Of a DNA stretch of 46,241 nucleotides, positions 1,205 through 13,087 are shown piece after piece. The stretch covers positions 1 to 46,241 of the forward strand of contig JABDDQ010000011.1 of assembly GCA_013287545.1 (NCBI GenBank). Direction: 5' to 3'. Within the stretch, counting starts at the first letter, position 1; every line of letters begins with the position of its first letter. The notes under the pieces are model-generated. The model worked only from the letters and a program-made list of their open reading frames with translations, had not been told where the DNA came from and made no database searches. Origin of the DNA: Bacteroidota bacterium. Lineage in GTDB: Bacteria > Bacteroidota > Bacteroidia > B-17B0 > Aurantibacillaceae. Both the position numbers and the translations under genes were made by a program.

Positions 1205-3508
1205 ATGAAAAATATTACTTACCTGCTTTTTATTTTTGCTTTAAGTATTACTGAATTATATGCTAAGCCTGTTATTATTACACTTGCAAAAGAAGTTGCC
1301 GTAAATTTTTACAATAAAAATTCTAACATAAAAGTAAAGGACATAACACTTGCTTATACATCTTCATCTAAAATAGGTGCTCCATTATACTTTGCGTTTA
1401 ATATAAATAACAATGATGGTTTTGTAATAGTAAGTGGCGATGATGCTATAAAACCCATTATTGGTTATTCAACCGAAAACAATTTTGTTAGACCAAAAGC
1501 AAATACTACAATAGCCTATTGGTTAAATGATTTTTCAAATGCAATAGAAACCAAACGAAGTAAGAGTTTTATTGCAGATGATGCAATTGTTAAAGAATGG
1601 GCAAGATATTTGGCTATTACAAATCAAGATAGAACCTATAATATTGTAAGTAGTGTTACCGATACTGTTGCCCCTCTTGTACAAACAACTTGGGATCAAT
1701 CTCCTAATTACAATAGTTTATGCCCGGGTGGCTCAGTAACGGGTTGTGTGGCAACAGCCATGGCTCAAATCATGAAATTTTGGAATTATCCAAGTCAGGG
1801 TGCCGATTCTAGTTCGTATTGCGATTGTGTAGCAAGTGGTTATCAAAATGATTATAGTACATTATCTGCTAATTATAGTGCAACTACTTATAACTGGGCT
1901 AATATGCCTTTAGCTTATTCAAATAGTGATGTGGCTCTACTTATGTATCATTGTGGTGTAAGTGTTGATATGGATTATTCTCCGAGTGAAAGTAATGCTT
2001 ATGTACTCACAGCTGATAAACCCGTTTGTTCACAATCTGCTTATATTAATTATTTTAAGTATAATCCCTATACTTTGCAAGGTATAAAAAGAGCAAATTA
2101 TACAGATACACAATGGATACAAGTATTGAAAAATGAACTGCTAAACGGGAGACCTATTCAGTATTTGGCACAGGACCCTGCTAATGGTGGGCATAGTTGG
2201 GTTGTAGATGGTTTTGATATAAATAACAATTTTAATATGAATTGGGGTTGGGGTGGCTACGATAATGGATATTATAACCTTGATAATTTAGACCCAAGCA
2301 GCGATAATTTCTCTTCATATCATGAAGCCCTTATTGGTATTGTGCCTATGTCAATAACCGCCAATGCAGCCGGCATTATCTCTATTTCTGAGCCAATTAC
2401 AGGTTGTAATGATACTATCATCAACCCAGTAATTAAACTACAAAATTATGGCAGTAGTACATTAAGTTCATCTATAATCAATTATCAAATAGATAACGGC
2501 ACTATCCAAACATATACCTGGAATGGTTCGCTAACGAGTGGCCAAACTGCTAATGTAAATCTACCAAGTCTTATTATCTCTTCAGCCGGAAATCATACAT
2601 TTGTTTGTTCTAGTATTAGTGCAAATAATACAACAAACGCAAATTTTGCAAACAGCCAATCAAGCATTAACTTTTATATTGTTTTTGGTACAAACACACC
2701 TCTTGCAGAAAGTTTTGAAACAACTACTTCGCTTCCAAATTCAATATGGAATATATCACATACATCAACAGGAGTAGATTTTACTATTACCTCTAATGCA
2801 GCAGCAACGGGTACTAAATCAGTAATGATAGATAACATAAATAATATAGCCGGAAACAATAGCCTTTTACAAACCTCTTCCTCTTATGATATGACAACTT
2901 TTACAACACCCTCATTAACATTTAAAGCTGCCTATCAACAAAAAACTATTACAAATGCCGATAAATTACAAATCTATACTTCTACTGATTGCGGTACCAG
3001 TTGGGTTTCAAGAAGGGCAATTACAAGTACTACTTTAGCTTCCCTTGCCGGAGGAACAGGAACAAGCCCTTATACACCAACACCATCTAAATTTACTACT
3101 TATACAGTTAATATAAACGGTGTAGCAAACAATCATAATGTTATGTTTCGTTGGGAGTTTTATGCCGACCCTAATGGACCTGGCAATAATTTGTATATAG
3201 ATGATATAAATATTATTAGCTCCGTGACTGGAATACAGAATATAGAAGAGCTTGTTAATTTAAATATATATCCTAATCCATCATCAGGTAAAGTAAATAT
3301 AGATTTTAATTTATCAGAAAAACATAATATTGCCATACAAGTAAGTGATATACTTGGCAGAGTTGTTGAAAATTTCGATACTAAATCTTACGAAGCAGGA
3401 GAAACAGTCTTAGTTTTTGGTTCTGCCAATTTATATCAGACAGGTGTTTATCTAATTAATTTAAATATTGACGGGCAACACATTGTTAAAAAAATAATTA
3501 TTCAATAA
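1205..3508 (+). CDS. T9SS-secreted C10 (streptopain-like) cysteine protease
   Basis: A 767-residue secreted protease. Order of parts: signal peptide (1-20, ending LYA); a Spi-type inhibitory propeptide (about 21-150, with the phrase GFVIVSGDD); a papain-fold C10 catalytic domain (about 155-375); beta-sandwich regions, one resembling a MAM or adhesin jelly roll (about 500-680); and a type A T9SS sorting domain (about 685-767, starting NLNIYPNPSSGK). Catalytic Cys181 is in VTGCVATAMAQ and His330 in GGHSWVVDGFD, followed by the NMNWGWGGY segment typical of the family. All key residues are present, so it should be active once the propeptide is removed. The T9SS domain predicts export across the outer membrane. 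It precedes the NHL gene by 11 bases, a probable operon. Confidence 0.93.
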   Translation: MKNITYLLFIFALSITELYAKPVIITLAKEVAVNFYNKNSNIKVKDITLAYTSSSKIGAPLYFAFNINNNDGFVIVSGDDAIKPIIGYSTENNFVRPKANTTIAYWLNDFSNAIETKRSKSFIADDAIVKEWARYLAITNQDRTYNIVSSVTDTVAPLVQTTWDQSPNYNSLCPGGSVTGCVATAMAQIMKFWNYPSQGADSSSYCDCVASGYQNDYSTLSANYSATTYNWANMPLAYSNSDVALLMYHCGVSVDMDYSPSESNAYVLTADKPVCSQSAYINYFKYNPYTLQGIKRANYTDTQWIQVLKNELLNGRPIQYLAQDPANGGHSWVVDGFDINNNFNMNWGWGGYDNGYYNLDNLDPSSDNFSSYHEALIGIVPMSITANAAGIISISEPITGCNDTIINPVIKLQNYGSSTLSSSIINYQIDNGTIQTYTWNGSLTSGQTANVNLPSLIISSAGNHTFVCSSISANNTTNANFANSQSSINFYIVFGTNTPLAESFETTTSLPNSIWNISHTSTGVDFTITSNAAATGTKSVMIDNINNIAGNNSLLQTSSSYDMTTFTTPSLTFKAAYQQKTITNADKLQIYTSTDCGTSWVSRRAITSTTLASLAGGTGTSPYTPTPSKFTTYTVNINGVANNHNVMFRWEFYADPNGPGNNLYIDDINIISSVTGIQNIEELVNLNIYPNPSSGKVNIDFNLSEKHNIAIQVSDILGRVVENFDTKSYEAGETVLVFGSANLYQTGVYLINLNIDGQHIVKKIIIQ

Positions 3509-7782: not shown

Positions 7783-9069
7783 TTACCCTTTAGTTTTGTG
7801 CTTTTTCTTTTTACTATTCTCATCATCCATCCCATCATTCAAGCGTTGAGCTGTTTGAGAAATATGTGCCTTGGTAACCTGCGCGTAAACTTCAGTTGTT
7901 TTGATAGAAGAATGCCCCAGCCATTTACTGACCGTTTTAATGTCCACATTTTTTTCCATTGTTATGGTTGTCGCGAATGTGTGTCTGGCCACGTGATAGG
8001 TTAGTGTCTTCTGTATTCCGGCTAATTTTCCAATCTCTTTTAAATATAGGTTTAGTTTTTGGTTGCTTATCCTTGGCAATATGTGTCCTGTTTTTATCCT
8101 GTTTTCTTCGTACTTATTATAAATATATTCTGCCGGTTTTAGTAACGGAATATGAAGTGCTTCCTTTGTTTTAAGCTGGTCAATGGTAATCCATAAATTG
8201 CCATCGCCTCCCCTGACAACGGCATTAGCCTTAAGCGACATAGAATCTGAAAAACGCAATCCGGTGTAAACAGAAAAGAAAAACATGTCCCTCACACGCA
8301 TAAGAGATAAGTTATTGCCAAGCGCATGATTTTTGATGATGGCCAGTTCTTCTTCCGTAAGAAATACTTTCTTGCCCCTGATTGCCTTTATCATAAAACC
8401 CTGAAACGGATTTTTAATAATGATCTCTTTGCGTATCGCGTTATTGATAACTACCTTCAGTTTAGTCAGATACTTATTTGCCGTATTCCTGTTCATAGGA
8501 CGTTTAAGAACCGGGTGCTCCCAACTAAGCAGCCAGTTCTCAAAGCGGTCTATCATGTTCCTGGAAACATTTTCCAATTGAATATCCTTTATTCTTATTC
8601 CCTTGAAAAAACTCTCCAGGTGAGATTTTAAGGCATAATAATGCGCAATGGTTGGCAAGGTGTAAACTTGTGGTTTCGATTTGGCCTCCTCGATGAATTC
8701 ATCTAAAAAAACCAACAAGCTATATTGTTTCTTCTGTAAAGGCTTTCCCCGGTAACCGTCCTTCATCATCGAAGCCATCACATGAACCTTTTGCCTTTCC
8801 AGTTCGTAATATACTTCCTGCAATTTGCCCTCCGCTTCGGATAGTTTAAAATTCAGGTAGTGCAATTGCTTTGATGTTCCCTTGAAACAGCCAAGCGATT
8901 CATCCCAATCAGCCGGATCAACAGTTATGTCCATACTGAAGTCTGTCTTTGTTCTGTTGACAATAACCCGGCAGTATACAGAAAGCTGATTTTCAATATC
9001 AGCTTTTGTTTTAATCAAAAAGAACTTTACTGTATACGGCAGTTTTGCTTCCAAGTTTTTTACATTCAT
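7783..9069 (-). CDS. Tyrosine recombinase / integrase (Bacteroidota type)
   Basis: A full-length 428-residue integrase. Order: N-terminal arm-binding domain (about 10-100, with SMDITVDPADWD), SAM-like core-binding domain (about 115-215) and catalytic domain (about 235-400). Catalytic residues are intact: Arg272 in TGLRFSD, His359 and Arg362 in HVARHTF, His386 in LGHSS and Tyr395 in TTEVYAQV, with Lys302 the likely beta-hairpin lysine. The lysine-rich tail (KKKKHK) is an added basic extension. It should cut and join DNA at attachment sites. The excisionase-like gene lies 3 bases upstream on the same strand, as in mobile-element integration modules. Confidence 0.93.
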   Translation of the reverse strand: MNVKNLEAKLPYTVKFFLIKTKADIENQLSVYCRVIVNRTKTDFSMDITVDPADWDESLGCFKGTSKQLHYLNFKLSEAEGKLQEVYYELERQKVHVMASMMKDGYRGKPLQKKQYSLLVFLDEFIEEAKSKPQVYTLPTIAHYYALKSHLESFFKGIRIKDIQLENVSRNMIDRFENWLLSWEHPVLKRPMNRNTANKYLTKLKVVINNAIRKEIIIKNPFQGFMIKAIRGKKVFLTEEELAIIKNHALGNNLSLMRVRDMFFFSVYTGLRFSDSMSLKANAVVRGGDGNLWITIDQLKTKEALHIPLLKPAEYIYNKYEENRIKTGHILPRISNQKLNLYLKEIGKLAGIQKTLTYHVARHTFATTITMEKNVDIKTVSKWLGHSSIKTTEVYAQVTKAHISQTAQRLNDGMDDENSKKKKHKTKG

Positions 9070-9072
9070 ATC

Positions 9073-9363
9073 TTATCGGTTTTTTTCGTTCGTGTTCAAT
9101 AGTTTCTTAAAATCACTCAAGCGATAAAAAACATCTTTGCCGCAAATGGTAGAAGATGAAATTTTATTTTCCTTTCTGAGTTCATATAACTTTGTTCTGC
9201 CAAGACCGGTCAGCTTCATAATGGTATCTTGATCCACCCAATCATCGCCGATGGTGTTTTTTTCAGTAACCCTTATGCTGAGCTGCCGGTTTATGGCATT
9301 CAAAAGAGATTCAATGGATTCCATTTTGCATTGTATTTTCATTAATTCTATTTCTTGATTCAT
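9073..9363 (-). CDS. Excisionase-like helix-turn-helix protein
   Basis: A 96-residue DNA-binding protein with a coiled N-terminal segment (about 1-45) and a MerR/Xis-type winged helix: DWVDQDTIMKLTGLGRTKLYELRKENKI ending in a wing with VFYRLSDFKKLL, where an Arg-Leu-x-Asp motif is typical. This family accompanies Bacteroidota integrases and either directs excision or represses mobile-element genes. It sits 3 bases from the integrase start, so both are probably cotranscribed. Confidence 0.82.
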   Translation of the reverse strand: MNQEIELMKIQCKMESIESLLNAINRQLSIRVTEKNTIGDDWVDQDTIMKLTGLGRTKLYELRKENKISSSTICGKDVFYRLSDFKKLLNTNEKNR

Positions 9364-9419: not shown

Positions 9420-10355
9420 CTATGCAGCATGCGATTGAGTGCCATTGAGATATGCATCCTTGATTGCTCTTGTAAGACTCTCCATAAACTGAACAGGCAC
9501 AGCGTTGCCTATTATCTTGTGAATATCGTGCGCACTAATTCCTTCAAAAGAAAACCAATCCGGTAATCCTGCAATGGTTCTTAACTCTTCAGTTGTCGCG
9601 CTTCTTAAAGTGCCCTTGTCCATTATCTGAAAACATTCACCGGCCGTAACGGTCATCAAATAAGAATCCGGCAGCTTAACCAGTTTTTTGGATTGGCCAG
9701 CGTATATACCGTCAATGTCCGGCAACACATAGCTGATCTTTCTTTTCAACGCACCGGCTATATCCGGTTCGGGGTATGGAGGTTTTATATTGATGTCTTT
9801 TCGGACACCAATATAAATGACTCGCTCCCTTGCTTGATTCGCCCCAAAGAATAATGCGTTTAGCTTTTTGCAATCCACATTATAATCCTTCAGCACAGTT
9901 TGAAAGCGATATTTAACTTCATTGAAGATTGGTGTCATTGGCGGCATGGTCATACCAGGAACATTCTCCATCAAAAAGAACTTAGGTTTTACTTTTGCTA
10001 TAAGCTCCTGGCTGTGTAAGAACAATGCATTTCTAATATCAAAGGGATTCTTTTTACCTGCAATGGAAAATCCTTGACAAGGCGCAGTCGCTGTCATAAG
10101 AAATAACTCACCTGCTTTTAATCCGGTACGCTCTAATATTTCTTCTGCTGTAAGAGCAAAAATATCCGTGTTTAAAAACTCGACTTGTTTTTCGTCTTTG
10201 AAGTTTTGTTCAAATACTTCCTGCGCTACTTTCCAGTTGTCAATTGCTAACACACCTTTGATACCTGCGTTATGCTGTCCTAAGGAGCCTACTCCGCCGC
10301 CGCAAAATAAGTCTACTGAATTTAAAATTTCTGATTTACTGTTTATCTTTTTCAT
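9420..10355 (-). CDS. DNA (cytosine-5) methyltransferase, orphan
   Basis: Chosen start is the ATG at 10355 (311 residues), because the longer frame to 10475 would overlap the upstream gene by about 98 bases. Motifs in order: I, DLFCGGGVGSLG; IV, TAPCQGFS with catalytic Cys93; VI, MENVPGM with Glu130; VIII, GANQARERVIYIG; X, IGNAVPVQF. Motif IV has TATAPC rather than the common GGPPC; otherwise the enzyme looks complete, with a short target-recognition region (about 185-265). No adjacent restriction endonuclease is recognisable, so it is probably a solitary modification enzyme protecting or regulating the element. Confidence 0.9.
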   Translation of the reverse strand: MKKINSKSEILNSVDLFCGGGVGSLGQHNAGIKGVLAIDNWKVAQEVFEQNFKDEKQVEFLNTDIFALTAEEILERTGLKAGELFLMTATAPCQGFSIAGKKNPFDIRNALFLHSQELIAKVKPKFFLMENVPGMTMPPMTPIFNEVKYRFQTVLKDYNVDCKKLNALFFGANQARERVIYIGVRKDINIKPPYPEPDIAGALKRKISYVLPDIDGIYAGQSKKLVKLPDSYLMTVTAGECFQIMDKGTLRSATTEELRTIAGLPDWFSFEGISAHDIHKIIGNAVPVQFMESLTRAIKDAYLNGTQSHAA

Positions 10356-10377
10356 GTTTATTTGGTTTAAGGGGTTT

Positions 10378-10890
10378 TTAAAATTTGATTTCGTTATTAC
10401 TTGTTTGATCTTTGTAAGCGAGTTGATTCGCTTTGGTGAATACAATCCTTCCTGTAGGTTGACGGCATTTTTCACAGCAAACCGGATTCAAAGAGATTTC
10501 CTCAATTGGTTTATAGTTCAGTTCATTTCCGTTTTCATCCTTGACAGCAGCCATCAAAGCAGTAAGTGGAATGGCACCGTTATCCGCATAACAGAGAAGA
10601 TTTTTCTTGCCGAGCGTTTCAACCCGGTAAATAGTTGAACCGTCTACACCGGTTATTTTCTCCATGCGTTCGCGCAGGTTTAGCTTTTCAACTTCTGCCT
10701 GATCTTCCGTCATAACAGGTCGTTGCCCTTGCTTAGTTCCCCAAAACTTTCTGAGAATTGAAACCTCTTTGAAAATTTCAGAGTAGCTTTTGTTGCGGAT
10801 CGTATTTGTGAACACACGAAATGCCGGTGCATCCTCTTCGTGGAAAGAGCAATGTTCGCTTACCAACTTGCATTTTATAAATTTTATCAT
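10378..10890 (-). CDS. Unknown protein with a Cys-rich pair
   Basis: A 170-residue protein with no recognised family. No signal or membrane segments. The N-terminal region resembles a compact domain (FHEEDAPAFRVFTNTIRN), followed by a charged helix (about 62-80), a beta-rich segment (TIYRVETLGKKNLLCYADNGAIPL) and CCEKCRQPTGRIVF near 137-150, which could bind a metal. It ends 22 bases before the methyltransferase start on the same strand, so it is likely in the same operon and may serve the modification function. Confidence 0.6.
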   Translation of the reverse strand: MIKFIKCKLVSEHCSFHEEDAPAFRVFTNTIRNKSYSEIFKEVSILRKFWGTKQGQRPVMTEDQAEVEKLNLRERMEKITGVDGSTIYRVETLGKKNLLCYADNGAIPLTALMAAVKDENGNELNYKPIEEISLNPVCCEKCRQPTGRIVFTKANQLAYKDQTSNNEIKF

Positions 10891-10969
10891 TTAGAAGTAT
10901 TTAATTCCGTATATGAGAAATTTTCAGAAAAAGTTTCTGCATAAAACAACAAATAGATAATCGTTATAG

Positions 10970-11012
10970 ACTCCCTGCAATTCTAAGCCCTTGATCTTCC
11001 AAGGGCTTTTTC
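10970..11012 (+). terminator. Intergenic module 1: conserved box plus hairpin terminator
   Basis: ACTCCCTGCAATTCTAA (10970-10986) runs into a perfect 9-bp stem AAGCCCTTG / CAAGGGCTT (10985-10993 and 11000-11008) followed by a T-rich tail. The same box with one base changed precedes another terminator at 11521. No plus-strand gene ends just upstream, so it may act as an attenuator for the 11060 gene rather than an ordinary terminator. Confidence 0.6.
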
Positions 11013-11059
11013 TTTTACTGATTGTTTCTTTTTTGGATAAGCTCAAATACCCTATATAA

Positions 11060-11518
11060 ATGTATGGCAATAAAAAAAAGCAAACAATCAGCATGACACA
11101 GCAACTTAAAGAACTCGTTTACGAAAGAGAAATTGAAAAATTAAGGGAAATTACCGACTATTATAAATACAGGATAGCGGCGGAACTGAAAATAATAAAG
11201 GAACTGAATGCAGAAGATATTATTCTTTCCTTAGAAAGAGTGGTTTCCACCGCCAAAAAACTTAGTGTTTCGCTTGAGGTAGGGCAGGAGCATGTAAAGA
11301 GCTCTTTCGTATGTTATCTATTGGGGATTTCAAAAACCAATCCTGTTGAAGCCGGATTAAGATTTGAATTGCCGGCAGACCTGAGAGAAATAAGTATTGA
11401 ACACTCGCCCGAAGACATGTATGCCATGCGGGAAGAATTTTCAGAAGAGGACAAAAAGCTGTTTTTCGATATTTCAGTAAAGTATGCGTACAGAGACCAA
11501 CTAACAGAAAACCGTTAG
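11060..11518 (+). CDS. Small protein resembling a DnaE2-type polymerase palm segment, catalytic Asp lost
   Basis: A 152-residue protein; an internal ATG at 11093 is an alternative start. Residues about 40-125 read like the part of bacterial replicative or error-prone DNA polymerase III alpha (DnaE/DnaE2) that carries the first catalytic aspartates: AAELKIIKELNAEDIIL, then VVSTAKKLSVSLEVGQ, then SSFVCYLLGISKTNPVEAGLRFE, then an ISIEH segment. Family members usually have GRGSAxxSxVCYxLGIxxxDPxxxGLLFERFL and then PDIDxDIEH. Here the Asp-x-Asp is replaced by Glu and Ser, so no polymerase activity is expected. It may be a decayed fragment or a repurposed small domain. Recognised by eye; an HMM comparison would decide. 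Confidence 0.5.
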   Translation: MYGNKKKQTISMTQQLKELVYEREIEKLREITDYYKYRIAAELKIIKELNAEDIILSLERVVSTAKKLSVSLEVGQEHVKSSFVCYLLGISKTNPVEAGLRFELPADLREISIEHSPEDMYAMREEFSEEDKKLFFDISVKYAYRDQLTENR

Positions 11519-11520
11519 AA

Positions 11521-11570
11521 ACTCCCTGTAATTCTAATAATCCTAAGCTCTTGGAAACCAGGAGCTTTTG
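11521..11570 (+). terminator. Intergenic module 2: conserved box plus hairpin terminator
   Basis: ACTCCCTGTAATTCTAA (11521-11537) nearly repeats the box at 10970. It leads to a 10-bp stem AAGCTCTTGG / CCAGGAGCTT (11545-11554, 11558-11567; one G-T pair) and a short T run. The stem sequence differs from module 1, so structure rather than sequence is kept. It ends the 11060 gene. Confidence 0.65.
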
Positions 11571-11666
11571 CATTTACTCCTTATTTTACGGATAAATACA
11601 GGTGTTTTCTCCGCAGCCGTGTCGCCGGGATCTGCTATCTCTGCTTATAACTAAAACTTAAAACCC

Positions 11667-12335
11667 ATGAAAACAGAGAAAGCAAGAGAAGTAATCATTC
11701 AGGCACTGAAAGAAAAAACAACTGTAACGGCCCATGAAATAAACACAGCCAGTAAAGGAAGCATCATTTTTGTGCAGATATATGCTGTGATGAACGCGTT
11801 CATTAAAGATGGCGCCGTTCAAATGAATGAAAGCGAAGGCAAGAAGCATTACACATTAGTTGATGCAGAAAAACTGAAAGACAATGTTGAGCCTGCGCCG
11901 GTTACAAAAACAGAACAACCGAAAGAAATTCCTGAAAACGAAGAGAAAGAAAAGAAAGAAGAAAAAGCAGAGAAAGTAACCAAACCCAAAAAGAAAGCCG
12001 GCAGGGATATGACCACCTATCAGTTCAACGGTAATACGTACAACAAAGGAAGACTGGCGCATGCGGTAATAACTCAATACGCCAAAGAGAAAAAGCCGAG
12101 CCTGAAAACTGCCTTGGAACTATTTAAAGATGAAATCGTGCCTCCTTATGGATTGATAAAAGAAATCAAGGAAGCGCGTAAACTCAGTAAGCCATACCAG
12201 CGCTTCTTTATCAAACCGGAGGAAGAAATCAAACTTCGTGATTGTGCCATCGGAGTTTCTAATCAATGGACACCGGATAGAATAGAAGCGTTAATAACGA
12301 TTGCCAGAAAACAGCTTGGTTACAAGATCAAGTAA
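11667..12335 (+). CDS. Unknown two-domain protein: winged-helix-like N-terminus and a conserved C-terminal domain
   Basis: A 222-residue protein. The first 65 residues resemble a small winged helix (AREVIIQALKEKTTVTAHEINTAS ... KHYTLVD). A Lys/Glu/Pro-rich linker follows (about 70-115). The C-terminal domain (about 116-222) starts YQFNGNTYNKGRLAHAVI and contains FFIKPEEEIKLRDCAIGVSN, then QW and a final helix. I recognise this as a widespread bacterial domain of unknown function with the pattern F-x-K-P-E-E ... QW, seen beside nucleases and modification genes; that association is from memory. Nearby genes in the element are the methyltransferase and RadC-like protein. Confidence 0.6.
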   Translation: MKTEKAREVIIQALKEKTTVTAHEINTASKGSIIFVQIYAVMNAFIKDGAVQMNESEGKKHYTLVDAEKLKDNVEPAPVTKTEQPKEIPENEEKEKKEEKAEKVTKPKKKAGRDMTTYQFNGNTYNKGRLAHAVITQYAKEKKPSLKTALELFKDEIVPPYGLIKEIKEARKLSKPYQRFFIKPEEEIKLRDCAIGVSNQWTPDRIEALITIARKQLGYKIK

Positions 12336-12360
12336 TTAGCTGTTTTTTGCTATGGTAGAG

Positions 12361-12390
12361 AAAGGAGCTCGTTGCTGGCTCCTTTTTCTT
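12361..12390 (+). terminator. Rho-independent terminator
   Basis: Stem AAAGGAGC / GCTCCTTT (12361-12368, 12378-12385) with a 9-base loop and a T-rich tail, 25 bases after the stop of the 222-residue gene. Confidence 0.8.
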
Positions 12391-12591
12391 TTTGCAAAAA
12401 TTTAGCTAAAATAACGGATGGTTATATTGCCATAAGTTGTCCCGGTGTGAACCATTCGCTCTTTTTAAGATAAAAAGTTCGCGATTCTCCACCCGGAGAA
12501 ATGCGGAGTATGGACTAAAAAGGGCTCTTTTTTCAGTGCGAGATTATTTTTTAATATCCACTTTTATAAATAAACACAAAAATTTGCTGCT
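12391..12591. other. Gene-free stretch with a short hairpin
   Basis: About 200 bases without a supported ORF between the terminator and the radC-like stop. TTCTCC / GGAGAA (12485-12490, 12495-12500) forms a 6-bp stem with loop ACCC, and CTTTTT / AAAAAG flanks a short spacer near 12452-12468. Function unknown; no known origin motif seen. Confidence 0.35.
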
Positions 12592-13014
12592 TTAAATCAC
12601 CCCTTCATTAGCAAAACTATAAAAACCATCTTCGGTAAATATGATATGATCCATTAAACGAATATCAATAATCTCTCCTGCATTCTTTACCCTTCTTGTA
12701 AGCCTTATGTCAGCCTCACTTGGATTTAAGTTGCCAGAAGGATGGTTATGAGCCAAGATGATACCACCACCGACTGCTTGGTGAATGGCCATTCTGAAAA
12801 TCTCTCTTGGTTCAGCTACTGTTCCAATCAGAGAACCAATACTTACCTGGTCAATATAACGGATAGTATTTCTTCTGGTGAGACCAATTGCATAAAGATG
12901 CTCTTTATCTTTTTCAAATGGTTCAAGCGCGTTGTATATTTCTTTTAAAATATCATATACAATATCCGCCTTGGTAATTTTCATGTTCTTGTATTTTGAG
13001 TGATCTACTAACAT
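12592..13014 (-). CDS. RadC/JAB-domain (MPN+) protein
   Basis: A 140-residue protein consisting of the RadC-type JAB metalloprotease-like domain without the N-terminal helix-hairpin-helix of chromosomal RadC. The metal-binding motif is intact: His89, His91, Ser93 and Asp102 in AHNHPSGNLNPSEAD, followed by DHIIF and FYSFANEG. An upstream Glu in AEPREIF may complete the site. The ATG at 12984 (residue 11) is an equally good start. Short RadC-like genes are frequent in Bacteroidota mobile elements; their biochemical role remains unsettled despite the name. Confidence 0.88.
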   Translation of the reverse strand: MLVDHSKYKNMKITKADIVYDILKEIYNALEPFEKDKEHLYAIGLTRRNTIRYIDQVSIGSLIGTVAEPREIFRMAIHQAVGGGIILAHNHPSGNLNPSEADIRLTRRVKNAGEIIDIRLMDHIIFTEDGFYSFANEGVI

Positions 13015-13087
13015 ATCGTGTTTAAACGAATGTAGCAGAACCTGTTTTCAGGAAAACAATAATTTGAAGAAATAAACATGTTATATG

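What the first reader, a model, noticed from the sequence alone, without database searches (positions are those of the whole stretch)
11060..11518. Mini-protein resembling the DnaE2 palm with catalytic aspartates replaced
The 152-residue protein follows the order of a DnaE/DnaE2 segment (EL-x-IIKEL, AKKLSV, S-x-VCYLLGI-x-x-x-NP, GLRFE, IEH) but has Glu and Ser where the Asp-x-Asp should be, and nothing of the fingers, PHP or OB domains. It has clean gene borders with a terminator of its own. A stand-alone, catalytically dead polymerase segment kept in a mobile element would be unusual; it could decoy or modulate a polymerase or clamp.
Basis: partly seen in the sequence, partly recalled or inferred. 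Interest (0 to 1): 0.62.

Follow-up and report, generated by a model that had tools for sequence, protein, structure and literature searches.

The report
Dead mini-fragment of replicative DNA polymerase
A mobile element in a Bacteroidota genome carries a small gene for one piece of the bacterial replicative DNA polymerase with its active site gone; relatives of the same short length, always next to the same neighbour gene, suggest that it has been kept on purpose rather than being a random leftover, perhaps for conflict with phages or other elements.

Summary
ORF 11060-11518 (probable start 11093, 141 aa) matches Pfam PF07733 (DnaE palm) at E=3.6e-10 and its model fits only Pol III alpha/PolC structures. 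The DxD aspartates and the GRGS loop are gone, as are PHP, thumb, fingers and OB. It is not a one-off truncation. The same genome has a second 152-aa copy (85%), and a second MAG (JAEUTR010000377) a 127-aa one (32-37%). All three sit directly before the same gene Y; two have gene X upstream. Beside the second copy lies a stand-alone, also degenerate DnaE FINGERS protein (PF17657, 2.1e-5; DnaE models to 2e-10), whose 3' relic survives in the window (~10837-10954). A third MAG has a 429-aa palm+fingers mini-DnaE with catalytic Asp retained, a plausible ancestral form. The DnaE-like part is under purifying selection (dN/dS 0.17; p=0.003). X and Y share an upstream element found only there; Y matches the candidate-defence profile PDC-S57. 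Best reading: a rare, repurposed, catalytically dead DnaE derivative in an integrative element, acting through protein contacts (replisome mimic/bait working with Y). Its target is unproven; partial decay is the main rival.

The parts
11060..11518 (+). 152-aa ORF as reported: stand-alone, catalytically dead first palm segment of DnaE (start more likely 11093, 141 aa)
   Evidence: PF07733 E=3.6e-10; NCBIfam DnaE models to 1.7e-10; only Pol III alpha/PolC chains match the model with probability 1.00; dN/dS 0.167 for residues 12-104, fewer aa changes than neutral, p=0.0027
10837..10954 (+). 3' relic of a stand-alone DnaE-fingers gene (RAMFAYQLAFYKFYHLEVFNSVYEKFSEKVSA*); its 5' part is gone and the 170-aa ORF lies antisense over part of it
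   Evidence: tblastn 53.6% identity to residues 202-229 of the intact fingers protein of the second copy, ends in a stop
10985..11008 (+). Terminator-like hairpin after the fingers relic; its flank resembles the 3' end of the palm gene
   Evidence: z=-3.5; blastn 10945-11018 against L031 6253-6181, 78%, E=1e-9
11545..11567 (+). Terminator-like hairpin after the palm gene, also present in both other loci
11604..11650 (+). Conserved element upstream of gene Y (TCG..GG.ATCTnCTATACTCG type), also upstream of X in the other loci; diverged in the window
   Evidence: alignment; exact/near-exact only twice in the own genome, upstream of X and Y in the second copy
11667..12335 (+). Gene Y, 222 aa: possible winged-helix N-terminus plus a C-terminal domain of candidate-defence family PDC-S57; follows the palm gene in all three loci
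   Evidence: 91% and 65% identical copies; PADLOC PDC-S57 E=7e-7
12592..13014 (-). RadC-like JAB protein, shared with the second copy
   Evidence: PF04002 5.3e-34; DNA homology spans 11015-13072, 86%
10378..10890 (-). 170-aa ORF distantly like the ParB-like protein next to a cytosine methylase in the second element
   Evidence: BLASTP E=2e-11
9420..10475 (-). C-5 cytosine DNA methylase, 38% identical to the one in the second element
   Evidence: PF00145 6.8e-47
9073..9363 (-). Small HTH/excisionase-like protein
   Evidence: HTH_17 1.6e-4, below cut-off
7783..9069 (-). Tyrosine recombinase of the integrative element
   Evidence: PF00589 1e-21, PF13102, PF17293

Best explanation
The gene encodes a repurposed, non-catalytic descendant of a C-family polymerase. 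Probable history: a compact PHP-less, thumb-less palm+fingers mini-DnaE (like the 429-aa protein of another MAG) was duplicated in tandem together with its terminator; the upstream copy kept start + fingers, the downstream copy kept start + first palm segment; both lost the active site. The palm piece then stayed in integrative elements next to Y (and often X). Probable action: it still folds like the outer, helical part of the Pol III alpha palm and works by protein contact, as a replisome mimic or bait that links Y (possible DNA-binding, candidate-defence protein) to a replication or phage factor. Shown: homology, loss of active-site residues, conserved short length, conserved neighbours, selection. 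Inferred: duplication route, mimic/bait mode, defence role, partner.
For: DnaE homology; active-site and GS-loop loss while the fold core is kept (fingers: 13 of 14 invariant hydrophobic positions stay hydrophobic but only 4 of 13 invariant polar ones are kept); three short homologues in two MAGs placed in different genera while nearly all other matches are full-length DnaE; palm-Y order in 3/3 loci and X upstream in 2/3; stand-alone fingers gene; palm and fingers N-termini alike (MTQQLKELVYEREIEK / MIEQLKRAVLEKEISK, p about 0.01) and shared terminator flank; purifying selection in the DnaE part; X and Y share an upstream element; Y is PDC-S57-like and its relatives sit beside type I R-M genes, X relatives beside HNH/M.Eco57I-like genes.
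Against: Only three loci in two incomplete MAGs; absent from other sampled genomes and from the phage, plasmid and viral collections at the sensitivity used. The tail (105-152) is weakly constrained (dN/dS 0.64) and the palm evolves faster than Y (32-37% against 65% between the two MAGs). Fingers is absent in one locus and broken in the window, X is absent from the window, so a full four-gene unit is not always needed. No direct evidence for any partner or for defence activity. The model was built on an alignment that included DnaE rows, so fold agreement is partly built in.
Confidence: 0.5

Rival explanations
1. Slow decay: pieces of a once functional element-borne mini-DnaE that persist for a while as open frames without a function of their own.
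For: Fingers lost or broken in two of three loci and X missing in the window; weak constraint in the tail; faster evolution than the neighbour Y; rarity.
Against: Intact palm frame in two genera at saturated synonymous divergence, conserved block SS[FY]VCYxLGxSKTNP shared by all three, fewer replacements than neutral in the DnaE part (p=0.0027), own conserved terminator and fixed place before Y.
Confidence: 0.22
2. Replication accessory of the element: the palm (and fingers) protein works with the element's own family-A/TV-Pol-like protein or with host Pol III to help copy the excised element.
For: The second element and the JAEUTR element both carry a 45% identical protein with DISNSQ / RxxxK / HDS motifs read by eye as TV-Pol-like, next to a related integrase; TV-Pols are known from mobile elements (PMC2579912).
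Against: No profile hit supports the TV-Pol reading; that gene was not seen beside the window copy; X and Y relatives without DnaE pieces sit beside R-M or nuclease genes rather than replication genes.
Confidence: 0.15
3. Palm and fingers proteins reassemble into an active split polymerase.
For: Both parts are encoded side by side in one locus; split DnaE-type PHROG families appear to exist in phages, judged from profile lengths.
Against: DxD, GS loop, third Asp segment, RPGP and the RRAMGKK-type residues are all gone; fingers is absent or broken in two of three loci.
Confidence: 0.03

Closest known systems
DnaE / Pol III alpha (C-family), PF07733 palm segment
   Same: Same fold segment; significant profile match and structural match
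   Different: Full-length members have over 1000 aa with PHP, thumb, fingers, OB and DxD; here about 100 aligned residues and no active site
429-aa mini-DnaE in MAG G447 (L044:669-1958)
   Same: Starts at the same point (QLKKLVYKG), shares the K-x-N-P variant of the palm motif, lacks PHP, thumb and OB
   Different: Palm and fingers in one chain, GRG and PDIDID kept; no X or Y beside it; contig start, element context unclear
ImuB-type inactive polymerases of the DnaE2 mutasome (described in PMC12926913, PMC3919608)
   Same: A catalytically dead polymerase homologue kept for protein contacts
   Different: ImuB is Y-family, nearly full length, with dnaE2/imuA partners; here C-family and a small fragment. 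Nothing shows mutasome membership
PHROG families with only the N-terminal part of DnaE (phrog_13169, phrog_7513, phrog_11127)
   Same: Profiles that end near the same palm point, suggesting phage polymerases split in the palm
   Different: Keep upstream sequence; genome context not examined here
PADLOC PDC-S57 (candidate phage defence)
   Same: C-terminal domain of the partner gene Y
   Different: Candidate family only; not known to involve a DnaE fragment

Membership tests
DnaE / Pol III alpha (C-family polymerase) | Sequence homology to the palm (PF07733) | tested here: met
   E=3.6e-10, above the curated cut-off
DnaE / Pol III alpha (C-family polymerase) | Catalytic Asp-x-Asp and GS/GRGS loop | tested here: not met
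   His/Pro (His/Leu in copy 2) in the DxD columns; VGQEHVKSS for GRGSAAGS
DnaE / Pol III alpha (C-family polymerase) | PHP, thumb, second palm segment, fingers, C-terminal domains in one chain | tested here: not met
   152-aa ORF; only PF07733 2-91 is covered
DnaE2 (error-prone) subgroup | Closer to DnaE2 than DnaE1 by profile | tested here: not met
   Error-prone model 1e-6 against 1.7e-10 for DnaE models; a tree with the split and mini forms was unresolved owing to long branches
Stand-alone dead DnaE-palm family (proposed here) | Short length, no active site, placed before Y in an integrative element | tested here: met
   Three loci: window, L031, L043/L074; integrase context
PDC-S57 candidate defence (gene Y) | Profile match over the C-terminal domain | tested here: met
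   E=7e-7, profile 104-242/245
PDC-S57 candidate defence (gene Y) | Anti-phage activity | not testable with these tools
   Needs phage challenge
TV-Pol (element polymerase in the related elements) | Superfamily-A core with two Asp and RxxxK motif | tested here: inconclusive
   Motifs read by eye in the 477/537-aa proteins; no profile hit

The most novel reading that the evidence does not exclude
A new conflict (defence-like) module of integrative elements in which a polymerase core has been taken apart: separate, catalytically dead Pol III alpha palm and fingers proteins serve as replisome mimics (bait or sensor) beside X and the PDC-S57-like protein Y under a shared control element.
Probability: 0.25. 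Interest if true: 0.8.

Novelty: new variant of a known kind. Interest (0 to 1): 0.55.

Why it matters
The C-family survey PMC3919608 removed fragments without an intact active site, and PMC12926913 discarded strongly diverged or truncated sequences before building trees, so dead C-family fragments would have been missed there. If the palm piece is really kept for contacts alone, it is a C-family counterpart of dead Y-family proteins such as ImuB and points to the surface of Pol III alpha that mobile elements or phages exploit. The 429-aa mini-DnaE is in itself a candidate for a very small C-family polymerase core.

Tried and rejected
Two genome-contig scans: the first used poor N-terminal patterns and found none, the second found only the JAEUTR contig. 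Five viral-contig scans with palm, mini-DnaE, X and Y found none; their short exact patterns are weak evidence of absence. Plasmid and phage tblastn gave only DnaE polymerases or nothing. G433:C299 hit (142-aa frame) turned out to be a YbeY-like protein, rejected as chance. Tree of split and mini forms: long branches, placement unresolved. X fold search: no credible PDB match. The sigma-70 promoter scan found no promoter on the + strand. Searching the shared X/Y element in the window gave nothing at 3 mismatches because the window copy has diverged. Active split polymerase rejected on residues.

Full report
Check of the observation. The ORF 11060-11518 (+) is real and ends in TAG followed by a terminator-like hairpin. 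It matches the Pfam DnaE palm family PF07733 over residues 15-103 at E=3.6e-10, well above the curated cut-off, and several NCBIfam DnaE models. AlphaFold on an alignment of 17 rows gives mean pLDDT 77; the 16 PDB matches with probability 1.00 are all Pol III alpha or PolC. The alignment contained DnaE rows, so this agreement is partly built in, and no Foldseek E-value is below 0.001. The catalytic DxD columns hold His and Pro (His and Leu in the second copy), and the GRGSAAGS loop is VGQEHVKSS. The true start is probably Met12 (11093).

The protein is not an isolated truncation. The same genome (an incomplete MAG, 57%) has a second 152-aa copy, 85% identical, on contig C26, and also a normal DnaE running to the end of contig C50. 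A MAG of another genus (JAEUTR010000377, 'Bacteroidia bacterium') has a 127-aa form, 32-37% identical. All three share the block SS[FY]VCYxLGxSKTNP. In 87 genomes of the family and 395 drawn from the phylum, nearly all other matches at the cut-offs used are full-length DnaE; the exceptions are contig-end fragments, the 429-aa mini-DnaE of MAG G447 and one chance YbeY-like match.

Neighbours. Order in the second copy: X (205 aa) - fingers (232 aa) - palm - Y (225 aa), with RadC convergent to Y. In JAEUTR: X - palm - Y. In the window: fingers relic - palm - Y - RadC. The 232-aa protein is a stand-alone DnaE fingers domain: PF17657 E=2.1e-5, above its cut-off, DnaE models to 2e-10 across residues 574-774 of the model. 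It keeps 13 of 14 invariant hydrophobic positions as hydrophobic but only 4 of 13 invariant polar ones, so like the palm it keeps the fold and has lost the site. Its 3' end survives in the window at about 10837-10954. Palm and fingers start alike, and the relic's terminator flank resembles the palm's 3' end; together this suggests a tandem duplication of a palm+fingers gene followed by complementary loss. A plausible ancestral form exists: MAG G447 encodes a 429-aa palm+fingers protein with PDIDID kept, no PHP, thumb or OB. The tree could not place these forms.

Selection. Between the two copies in this genome, dN/dS is 0.30 overall, 0.17 in residues 12-104 and 0.64 in the tail. Random placement of the same substitutions gives more replacements than seen (15.4 against 9, p=0.0027 for the DnaE part; 28.4 against 22, p=0.015 from Met12 to the end; an earlier looser version over the whole ORF gave p=0.06). 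Y and RadC are tighter (0.054). Synonymous divergence is lower in palm (0.23) than in Y (0.78) and RadC (0.63); a recombination patch is one possible reason. Between genera, synonymous sites are saturated yet the frame is open.

Setting. The window gene lies in a stretch with a tyrosine recombinase, a small HTH protein and a cytosine methylase. The second copy and JAEUTR lie in related elements with 424/425-aa integrases, 116-aa partners and 477/537-aa proteins that are 45% identical. X and Y have a similar upstream element that, as a pattern with up to one mismatch, occurs only twice in this genome, before X and before Y; the pattern was derived from these sites. Y matches the candidate-defence profile PDC-S57. 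Y relatives without DnaE pieces lie near type I R-M genes; X relatives lie near an HNH and an M.Eco57I-like gene or other genes.

Reading. The evidence favours a rare DnaE derivative kept without catalysis in integrative elements, with Y as its most constant partner. The mechanism of protein mimicry or bait towards a replication partner, and a role in conflict, are inferences. Partial decay is the chief rival because fingers and X are not always kept and only three loci are known.

Literature. [quoted passage not shown] No paper found in the searches made describes a stand-alone dead DnaE palm.

Noticed in passing
L044:669-1958 (G447:C1): 429-aa mini-DnaE with palm and fingers, catalytic PDIDID kept, PHP, thumb and OB absent: possibly a very small C-family polymerase core.
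   Followed up: partly
L094:1488-2921 and L074:3979-5592: Element proteins of 477/537 aa, 45% identical, with motifs that look like a TV-Pol (family A) polymerase by eye but no profile hit.
   Followed up: partly
L031:7492-8109, L043:842-1456, L091:6040-6690, L101, L103, L104: Gene X, an orphan family of about 205-223 aa with no known fold, with scattered relatives across the class, in at least one genome next to restriction-type genes.
   Followed up: partly
window 10985-11008 and 11519-11575: Related terminator modules repeated after the fingers relic and after the palm gene.
   Followed up: partly
window 11093-11515 against L031: Synonymous divergence between the two copies is about a third of that in the flanking Y and RadC genes; recombination patch or extra constraint, unexplained.
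   Followed up: no
window 1205-3508: Secreted C10-family cysteine peptidase with its I69 inhibitor propeptide and a T9SS sorting tail.
   Followed up: no
window 9420-10890 and L031 12083-13864: Cytosine methylase paired with a ParB-like/zinc-ribbon small protein, in both of the related elements of this genome.
   Followed up: partly
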